From Paenibacillus sp. 32O-W (GTDB lineage: Bacteria > Bacillota > Bacilli > Paenibacillales > NBRC-103111): 64,000 nucleotides of DNA. The notes beneath the pieces are model-generated. The model was not told where the DNA came from. It ran no database searches and was given only the letters and a program-made list of their open reading frames with translations. The position numbers were made by a program, and so were the translations under genes. Location: positions 1-64,000 of the forward strand of contig NZ_VEGP01000019.1 of the NCBI RefSeq assembly GCF_007679495.1, written 5' to 3'. Positions 30,023 to 32,532 of this stretch are shown here, one piece after another. Numbering within the stretch: the first letter of the stretch is position 1; the number at the start of each line of letters is the position of its first letter.

Positions 30023-30222
30023 GGCACCAAAGACGAGCAAAAGTGCAGGTCATTTTGCGTAATTCCGGTAAATCTCGGGAAAGACGAGCAAAAGTGCAGG
30101 TCTTTTTCCGCAAAACGCTGAAAATCCGCAAAATGGCTGAATTTACCTGCACAATTGCACGTCTTTTGCTGTTTTTGGCTTAAATCGTTCCGAAGACCTG
30201 CACTTTTGCAGGTCCTTGAGCG
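30023..30222. repeat. Extragenic repeat cluster (family of 9930-10110)
   Basis: AAAGACGAGCAAAAGTGCAG occurs twice in tandem (near 30030 and 30079). Inverted words follow: ATTTACCTGCAC near 30138, GCACGTCTTTTGC near 30155 and the palindrome GACCTGCA-CTTT-TGCAGGTC at about 30195-30214. Confidence 0.6.
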
Positions 30223-30349
30223 CCTCGTCCTCATTCATTGACCTTTAAATCTAAAAAGTTAGGAAAGGTACGGTCTGCTGTTGATAGCGAGTTTTGAATA
30301 AACTTTATTTAGAAGAGATAATATTAAATCTGGTAACTTTACGGAATTT

Positions 30350-30553
30350 TAATGAGTAGTGCCGTTATGAGATATAGTTTAAAGAAGTGCGAACCTATAG
30401 CTCACATGCAAACCCCGGGAAACTCGCACCGACGTAACGACGCGGGTTTTTGGCATTTTTGCAGATTTTGTTGGCAGTATGAACCTCGCAAAATGGAGAT
30501 TCGCACTTTTAACTGTTTGAGCCCTTGTGGTATGCTGGATTTGGCAGCACCCT
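30350..30553 (+). promoter_or_regulatory. Probable CRISPR leader
   Basis: The sequence next to the end of the array with perfect repeats, therefore the likely site of new spacer insertion and pre-crRNA promoter. It contains ATTCGCACTTTTAACTG and TGTGGTATGCTGG near the array; no promoter is certain. Confidence 0.55.
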
Positions 30554-32532
30554 GTCGCACTCTACGCGAGTGCGTGGATTGAAATGGATATACGATGGAG
30601 CCAAAGAATTGCGTTTTGGTCGCACTCTACGCGAGTGCGTGGATTGAAATGAAGTACTGAGTATCAATGTGAGTGGCACAAGTACCGTCGCACTCTACGC
30701 GAGTGCGTGGATTGAAATTTCCTCTGTGGGCATTTCATTTAGGTCATTCATGTAGTCGCACTCTACGCGAGTGCGTGGATTGAAATTGAACATCGTCCGT
30801 ATTGGGAAAACAAAGGCAGTGTCGCACTCTACGCGAGTGCGTGGATTGAAATATAGTCGCCTGCTACAAGCGGGCGTGGATTGAAGTCGCACTCTACGCG
30901 AGTGCGTGGATTGAAATGTCTTCGTTGGCTTGTGCCACCAGTTCAAGGTAGTCGCACTCTACGCGAGTGCGTGGATTGAAATCGGCGTTTCCAATGGATG
31001 CAGCTCCCCGGCACAATGTCGCACTCTACGCGAGTGCGTGGATTGAAATCACCCAATCTTCACCTGAATAATACGGCCCCTCGTCGCACTCTACGCGAGT
31101 GCGTGGATTGAAATATCTGGCTTTTCGTTTTTTCAACGAAGTAATGTTGTCGCACTCTACGCGAGTGCGTGGATTGAAATGCTGACCTTGAATCCAGATT
31201 CCCTAAACTCATCGGTCGCACTCTACGCGAGTGCGTGGATTGAAATTTAACGCCGGTCAACACGTCGATTGCCATCTGATGGACGTCGCACTCTACGCGA
31301 GTGCGTGGATTGAAATGCTGATGCCGGGTCCAGAGAGATATTCGTAAAGCGTCGCACTCTACGCGAGTGCGTGGATTGAAATTCGGCAACATACAGCAAC
31401 AACGGCAACCTCCCACGGCAGTCGCACTCTACGCGAGTGCGTGGATTGAAATTGGGGCTGTATCAAAGAATAAGTTCGCGTGCCATTGTCGCACTCTACG
31501 CGAGTGCGTGGATTGAAATTAGTGTGTCAGCTGCGGCGAATTCAGCCAGTTCCTCCAGTCGCACTCTACGCGAGTGCGTGGATTGAAATATGTCGCTGAG
31601 CAGACGGATGAAAAACACGCGGATAGTCGCACTCTACGCGAGTGCGTGGATTGAAATTTTTCTTTTGGTTTAGGATTTCTTTCGTACAGTGTCGCACTCT
31701 ACGCGAGTGCGTGGATTGAAATAGGGATGCTATCCGCAAAGGGACAAAGAACCTCGGTCGCACTCTACGCGAGTGCGTGGATTGAAATCGCCGGGACCTC
31801 TCCGAACCCTGTTGTACAGGTAAGTCGCACTCTACGCGAGTGCGTGGATTGAAATCCTATTTTACAGCGGATTCTACTATCCGTTGTATGTCGCACTCTA
31901 CGCGAGTGCGTGGATTGAAATCCTTTATCCCCTTCCATCTGCTATAATGGACTTAAGGTCGCACTCTACGCGAGTGCGTGGATTGAAATCGTGAGTGTGA
32001 TCCGGTGTTGTAAGATAGAAATCGGTCGCACTCTACGCGAGTGCGTGGATTGAAATTCTACATAAATGGAGCAAACCGGGGCGCCGCGCAAAGTCGCACT
32101 CTACGCGAGTGCGTGGATTGAAATCAACACGAAGTTTGTCTTGAGATCGACCGGTTGAAAGTCGCACTCTACGCGAGTGCGTGGATTGAAATTTGGAGTG
32201 ATTCTTAAGCAAACCCCTAAATTTCCAAGTGTCGCACTCTACGCGAGTGCGTGGATTGAAATAATATCGAATTTATGAAATCCGTTGCGGATCTGAGTCG
32301 CGCTCTACGCGAGTGCGTGGATTGAAATAATCGGATTTAGGAAGCAGCAGCCTAAATGGATGTCGCACTCTATGCGAGTACGTGGATTGAAATGGTCTCC
32401 TTCTTAGGCTTTTCCGGCTCCCCTGCTGGAGGTCGCACTCTACGCGAGTACGTGGATTGAAATCACTTGACCGGATTTAATATACTTAACTGCGCTTATC
32501 GTCGCACTCAACGTAAGTGCGTGGACCAAATC
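30554..32532 (+). CRISPR. CRISPR array, type I-C-like, 30 repeats and 29 spacers
   Basis: 32-base repeats start GTCGCACTCTACGCG and end AGTGCGTGGATTGAAAT, with a 6-bp stem GCACTC/GAGTGC. This is the type I-C (Cas5d/Cas8c) repeat class known from Bacillus halodurans. Repeats 1-26 (30554 to 32262) are identical. Repeats 27-29 carry one to two changes and repeat 30 (32501-32532) is badly degenerate, so the leader is on the left and the array reads on the plus strand. Spacers are 33-38 bases. Spacer 5 (30853-30885) is itself a diverged repeat. No cas1, cas2, cas3, cas4, cas5, cas7 or cas8 gene lies anywhere in the window, so the array must depend on a distant locus or be a relic. The long run of identical repeats argues for recent activity. 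Targets could not be searched. Confidence 0.98.
30853..30885 (+). repeat. CRISPR spacer 5: a foreign-type CRISPR repeat
   Basis: After ATA, the remaining 30 bases start GTCGCCTGCTACAAG and end CGGGCGTGGATTGAA. They match the array repeat at 23 of 30 positions. All seven differences lie in the hairpin, and the stem is kept (GCCTGC/GCGGGC) by two compensatory base-pair changes and one wobble. Total length of 33 equals an ordinary spacer. Confidence 0.9.

What the first reader, a model, noticed from the sequence alone, without database searches (positions are those of the whole stretch)
30853..30885. A CRISPR spacer that is itself a type I-C repeat with compensatory stem changes
Spacer 5 is ATA plus 30 bases that match the host repeat at 23 of 30 positions. 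All mismatches are in the hairpin, where stem GCACTC/GAGTGC becomes GCCTGC/GCGGGC: two fully compensated pairs and one wobble. That is the signature of a real repeat from another I-C array, not a random hit. Its 33-base length equals a normal spacer. Two explanations stand out. It may be a spacer captured from a rival or former CRISPR array, so the crRNA would target CRISPR DNA. Or it may be a relic of recombination between arrays. If transcribed, the intact hairpin could also be cut by Cas5d inside the spacer, giving an odd short crRNA.
Basis: partly seen in the sequence, partly recalled or inferred. Interest (0 to 1): 0.85.

Follow-up and report, generated by a model that had tools for sequence, protein, structure and literature searches.

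The report
CRISPR spacer made from foreign repeat
One memory slot in this bacterium's CRISPR array holds not ordinary virus DNA but a copy of a foreign CRISPR repeat, most likely taken from a phage that carries such repeats as decoys against CRISPR; when transcribed it should be cut by the cell's own processing enzyme and so may ruin its own guide RNA.

Summary
Spacer 5 (30853-30885) is ATA plus a 30-nt type I-C repeat matching the host repeat at 23/30 positions. All 7 differences lie in the hairpin; two stem pairs are compensated and one becomes G-U. The next best of the genome's 94 spacers scores 17; 20,000 shuffles reach at most 20. The genome has three I-C arrays and one complete I-C cas operon, but no other copy of this repeat. 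No copy of its core was found in 84,980 GTDB genomes, IMG/VR, phages or plasmids. Spacer length and intact flanking repeats point to normal capture, not recombination. The nearest relatives are a repeat in a phage-contig array (27/30) and a solitary phage repeat behind TATAAT (26/30). Best reading: a spacer captured from foreign I-C repeat DNA, probably a phage solitary repeat. Its hairpin should be cut by Cas5d inside the spacer, giving 35- and 30-nt pieces instead of a 65-nt crRNA. The donor was not found, so phage solitary repeat versus foreign array stays open, and cutting is untested.

The parts
30400..30553 (+). Leader of the CRISPR array (left side); closely similar to the leader of the cas-linked array on contig C173
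   Evidence: upstream sequences printed; degenerate repeats lie at the right end
30554..32525 (+). Type I-C CRISPR array, 32-nt repeat GTCGCACTCTACGCGAGTGCGTGGATTGAAAT, 28 spacers up to the 29th repeat, last repeats degenerate
30821..30852 (+). Repeat 5, canonical, upstream of spacer 5
30853..30885 (+). Spacer 5: ATA plus 30 nt of a foreign type I-C repeat
30858..30876 (+). Hairpin inside spacer 5 (8 bp, 3-nt loop, one G-U); predicted Cas5d cut between 30876 and 30877
   Evidence: fold; cut position by analogy with the 21-nt/11-nt split reported for B. halodurans Cas5d (PMC3890593)
30886..30917 (+). Repeat 6, canonical, downstream of spacer 5

Best explanation
Spacer 5 was inserted by ordinary spacer acquisition (host Cas4-Cas1-Cas2) from foreign DNA that carried a type I-C CRISPR repeat. 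The most likely donor is a solitary repeat in a phage, the form of RNA anti-CRISPR (Racr) genes. In the array it is transcribed inside the pre-crRNA as a third hairpin between two normal ones. Cas5d should cut it at the stem base, so that the normal 65-nt crRNA (30842-30906) is replaced by a 35-nt piece (11-nt handle + 24 nt ending in a hairpin; 30842-30876) and a 30-nt piece (9-nt partial handle + host hairpin; 30877-30906). The spacer would then give weak or no immunity against its donor, and its products resemble the short non-productive RNAs made from Racrs. Shown: sequence, register, absence of another copy in the genome, intact I-C cas operon, predicted hairpin, abundance of solitary I-C repeats in viral contigs. 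Inferred: the phage donor, cutting inside the spacer, any effect on immunity. I put capture of some foreign I-C repeat at about 0.85, and a phage solitary repeat as its source at about 0.55.
For: Match 23/30 with compensated stem pairs, far above other spacers and shuffles. Spacer length normal and both flanking repeats intact. The three host I-C arrays use other stems and hold no copy. No exact core in viral contigs or 84,980 genomes. GTCGCNTGCTNNNNGCGNGCGTGGATTGAA is absent from the 84,980 genomes; in viral contigs only the solitary phage repeat L130 fits the looser GTCGCNTGCNNNNNGCGNGCGTGGATTGAA (26/30). L130 lies just after TATAAT beside phage head and portal genes. Viral contigs: at least 120 stretches with the generic I-C repeat, mostly single copies; 79 distinct solitary against 33 distinct array-type sequences by a simple flank test. 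Complete cas3-5d-8c-7-4-1-2 operon. Cas5d closely similar over its length to BH0337 of B. halodurans (1e-113), which cuts nearly the same repeat at the hairpin base. The spacer keeps both bottom G-C pairs and most of the 3' single strand of the repeat. Solitary phage repeats are known RNA anti-CRISPRs, including a type I-C one (PMC10651486).
Against: No donor sequence was found, so the PAM and the phage origin are untested. The closest sequence of all is one repeat of a phage-contig array (27/30, L168), not a solitary repeat. Non-Watson-Crick stems are nearly as common in array repeats (33%) as in solitary ones (41%), so the wobble does not discriminate. Cutting inside the spacer is not shown.
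Confidence: 0.55

Rival explanations
1. The spacer was captured from a real CRISPR array (of another bacterium, a plasmid, or a phage that carries its own I-C array), so that it is a memory of CRISPR DNA rather than of an RNA anti-CRISPR.
For: The best match of all (27/30, same TACAA loop) is a repeat in an array on the 113-kb viral contig IMGVR_UViG_3300045115_000211 next to I-C cas7/cas5/cas8/cas3 homologues. An array in a genome of the same order has one copy with the same stem GCCTGC/GCGGGC but another loop (L153).
Against: No array in 84,980 genomes carries this stem-loop family. Among viral I-C repeats seen here, solitary ones outnumber array ones. Spacers from other cells' chromosomes are rare (own knowledge).
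Confidence: 0.28
2. Relic of recombination between arrays: a foreign repeat entered the array with flanking spacers that were later deleted.
For: The leaders of two host arrays are alike, so arrays have been duplicated or exchanged.
Against: It needs two separate deletions that happen to leave 33 nt, a normal spacer length. All neighbouring repeats are identical to consensus, no host array carries the variant, and nothing of a foreign spacer is left beyond ATA.
Confidence: 0.07
3. Ordinary protospacer from a phage protein gene that resembles a repeat by chance.
For: Viral contig L166 matches 21 contiguous nt of the hairpin part inside a gene for a putative structural protein; the antisense frame of spacer 5 would read FNPRPLVAGDY against GYARPLVAGDP.
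Against: L166 fails in the remaining 12 nt (4/12). A 19-mer is expected about 0.3 times by chance in a collection of this size (my estimate). Its homologues are in phages of Sinorhizobium, Pseudomonas, Myxococcus and the like, and the degenerate peptide pattern is absent from viral contigs. All 17 conserved I-C bases at the right spacing have a chance of about 6e-11 per position.
Confidence: 0.04
4. Decay of a host repeat with two shortened spacers, or an assembly error.
For: The right end of the array shows repeat decay.
Against: Decay does not produce compensated stem pairs, and this position is near the leader where all repeats are perfect. The spacing of 65 nt from repeat to repeat is that of one normal spacer.
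Confidence: 0.03

Closest known systems
Racr / solitary repeat units (PMC10651486, Nature 2023), including RacrIC1
   Same: A single type I-C repeat mimic with intact stem-loop and altered stem sequence; expected to be cut by the host crRNA endonuclease and to leave non-productive RNAs
   Different: Racrs sit alone on phage or plasmid DNA with their own promoter. This one lies inside a host CRISPR array as a spacer, lacks the last 2 nt and is transcribed from the leader. Its inhibitory activity is untested.
Virus-borne mini-CRISPR arrays and stand-alone repeats (Medvedeva et al. 2019, PMC6858448)
   Same: CRISPR repeats on viral DNA that resemble those of the host
   Different: There the repeat is on the virus and spacers target viruses; here a repeat has itself become a host spacer.
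Type I-C system of Bacillus halodurans (Cas5d BH0337, PDB 4f3m)
   Same: Nearly the same repeat, a close Cas5d homologue, 33-36 nt spacers
   Different: No repeat-like spacer reported in the papers I could read.

Membership tests
CRISPR spacer (type I-C) | Lies between two intact repeats with a length inside the array's range | tested here: met
   33 nt between canonical repeats; range 33-38
CRISPR spacer (type I-C) | Full protospacer with PAM (TTC type) on a foreign element | tested here: inconclusive
   No protospacer found. A TTC at the right place occurs before 5 of 90 solitary viral repeats, once as TTCATA (L100), which shows only that such a PAM is possible
Type I-C CRISPR repeat | Conserved GTCGC and GCGTGGATTGAA 13 nt apart | tested here: met
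   17 of 17 bases
Type I-C CRISPR repeat | 6-bp stem with loop | tested here: met
   5 Watson-Crick + 1 G-U in the 6-bp stem; folds as 8 bp
Type I-C CRISPR repeat | Direct copies of the same repeat in an array | tested here: not met
   Single copy in genome G000; it is not an array repeat here
Racr / solitary repeat unit | Solitary repeat on a mobile element, intergenic | tested here: not met
   It lies in a host array; only its presumed donor could meet this
Racr / solitary repeat unit | Bound and cut by the host crRNA endonuclease | not testable with these tools
   Substrate features kept (stem base, most of the 3' single strand); Cas5d present
Racr / solitary repeat unit | Inhibits the matching CRISPR-Cas system | not testable with these tools
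   No assay

The most novel reading that the evidence does not exclude
The bacterium acquired a spacer from a phage RNA anti-CRISPR gene. Because the spacer is itself a Cas5d substrate, the resulting immunity cuts itself and a Racr-like RNA is now made from the host's own array. Solitary repeats would then be protospacers against which this system cannot be immunised in the forward orientation.
Probability: 0.35. Interest if true: 0.78.

Novelty: new variant of a known kind. Interest (0 to 1): 0.57.

Why it matters
Racrs were described in 2023; I found no report on whether hosts acquire immunity against them. A repeat-derived spacer makes the question testable: does Cas5d cut inside the spacer, and does that make a Racr locus a protospacer that protects itself, or even plant the decoy in the host array? 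It also gives a search rule (repeat tail, 0-8 nt, repeat) for finding such events in other arrays; here it was unique in 398 genomes of the phylum.

Tried and rejected
Exact and degenerate pattern scans for the donor in viral contigs (8 of 8 used) and genome contigs (2 of 2): no donor. blastn in phages and plasmids: chance hits only. L166, a 21-nt exact match inside a phage structural gene, was followed up and judged chance. Stem wobble as a marker of solitary origin: not discriminating. Sister-genome comparison: G001 has only a decayed two-repeat remnant. Targets of other spacers, sought to find a shared donor phage: only spacer 20 gave one (nrdF of SPO1-like Bacillus phages); spacers of this array had no protospacer in 103 family genomes. 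Self-targeting of host repeats by spacer 5: 7 or more mismatches, and no site has both TTC and ATA in place. One PADLOC scan of a stretch of ArgS was uninformative.

Full report
Observation. It keeps all 17 bases of the I-C framework (GTCGC, 13 nt, GCGTGGATTGAA) and differs from the host repeat only at 7 hairpin positions. Two stem pairs are changed on both sides (A-T to C-G, T-A to G-C) and one becomes T-G. Best match to the repeat among 94 spacers of the genome: 23 for spacer 5, 17 for the next, median 12; 20,000 shuffles of spacer 5 reach at most 20. This is not chance.

Surroundings. The genome (5.76 Mb, 235 contigs) has three I-C arrays: contig C15 (loop TGCAT), the window (loop TACGC) and C173 (loop TGTAC). 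None carries the spacer-5 stem, and no other copy exists in the genome. A complete cas3-cas5d-cas8c-cas7-cas4-cas1-cas2 operon follows the C173 array. The leaders of the window array and the C173 array are closely alike, so the window array is presumably served by that operon. Cas5d aligns over nearly its full length with BH0337 of Bacillus halodurans (1e-113), for which cutting at the hairpin base of nearly the same repeat, leaving 11-nt and 21-nt tags, is described (PMC3890593).

Search for the donor. The 27-nt core is absent from viral contigs and from 84,980 GTDB genomes; phages and plasmids give chance hits only; 104 genomes of the family have nothing within 3 mismatches apart from the window itself. 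GTCGCNTGCTNNNNGCGNGCGTGGATTGAA is absent from the 84,980 genomes. In viral contigs a slightly looser form has one match, the solitary repeat L130: GTCGCGTGCTACGTGCGCGCGTGGATTGAAAT, 26/30, placed just behind TATAAT and beside head and portal genes. The closest sequence of all (27/30, the same TACAA loop) is one repeat of an array on a 113-kb viral contig with homologues of I-C cas7, cas5, cas8 and cas3. A genome of the same order has an ordinary array with one copy of the same stem and another loop.

A false trail. L166 matches 21 contiguous nt of the hairpin inside a phage structural gene. The remaining 12 nt do not match (4/12), homologues lie in phages of other host groups, and the degenerate peptide pattern is absent from viral contigs. 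With about 1e11 positions searched, a 19-mer hit is expected about 0.3 times by chance (my estimate). I treat it as chance.

Interpretation. Normal spacer length, intact flanking repeats and the lack of leftover foreign spacers favour normal capture over recombination. Whether the donor was solitary or in an array cannot be decided here: non-Watson-Crick stems occur in 41% of solitary and 33% of array sequences, and the closest relative is from a phage-contig array. The pattern 'repeat tail, 0-8 nt, repeat' was found in no other of 398 genomes of the phylum, so such events are rare, at least in this orientation and register.

Mechanism. The array transcript should hold three hairpins here; the one in spacer 5 forms with pair probabilities of about 1 in the 97-nt context. 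If Cas5d cuts it at the same place as a repeat, the 65-nt crRNA 30842-30906 becomes a 35-nt piece (30842-30876) and a 30-nt piece (30877-30906), neither with a normal guide. Even uncut, the guide is locked in an 8-bp hairpin. For RacrIF1 the inhibitory part is the product upstream of the cut (PMC10651486), so the 35-nt piece is the first to test for Racr-like action. All these steps are inferred. Self-targeting of host repeats is unlikely: sites have 7 or more mismatches and none has both the PAM and ATA.

Novelty. I found no paper in the held library that describes a host spacer made of a CRISPR repeat or solitary repeat; the library lacks most subscription journals, so this is weak evidence of novelty. 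I rate it a new variant of a known kind: a known type of object (a spacer) with an unusual content (a repeat), and with a testable consequence for how hosts and RNA anti-CRISPRs interact.

Noticed in passing
window 31856-31889: Spacer 20 matches nrdF (ribonucleotide reductase beta subunit) of SPO1-like Bacillus phages at 31 of 34 positions (best records Goe17, Goe27), so the array remembers large lytic phages.
   Followed up: partly
L078 and L168 (IMGVR_UViG_3300045115_000211, about 74290-81870): A 113-kb viral contig carries homologues of I-C cas7, cas5, cas8 and cas3 and an I-C array with variable loop sequences, plus one solitary repeat 6 kb away; it may be a phage with its own I-C system.
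   Followed up: partly
L154 (G001:C5:8124-8153): The only other genome of the genus keeps just a decayed two-repeat remnant of an I-C array.
   Followed up: partly
window 30029-30225: Repeated and inverted AAAGACGAGCAAAAGTGCAGGTC-like elements between argS and the leader, three copies.
   Followed up: no
L100:1026: A solitary viral I-C repeat preceded by TTCATA, i.e. a TTC PAM and the same three bases as spacer 5, but with a different stem (20/30).
   Followed up: no
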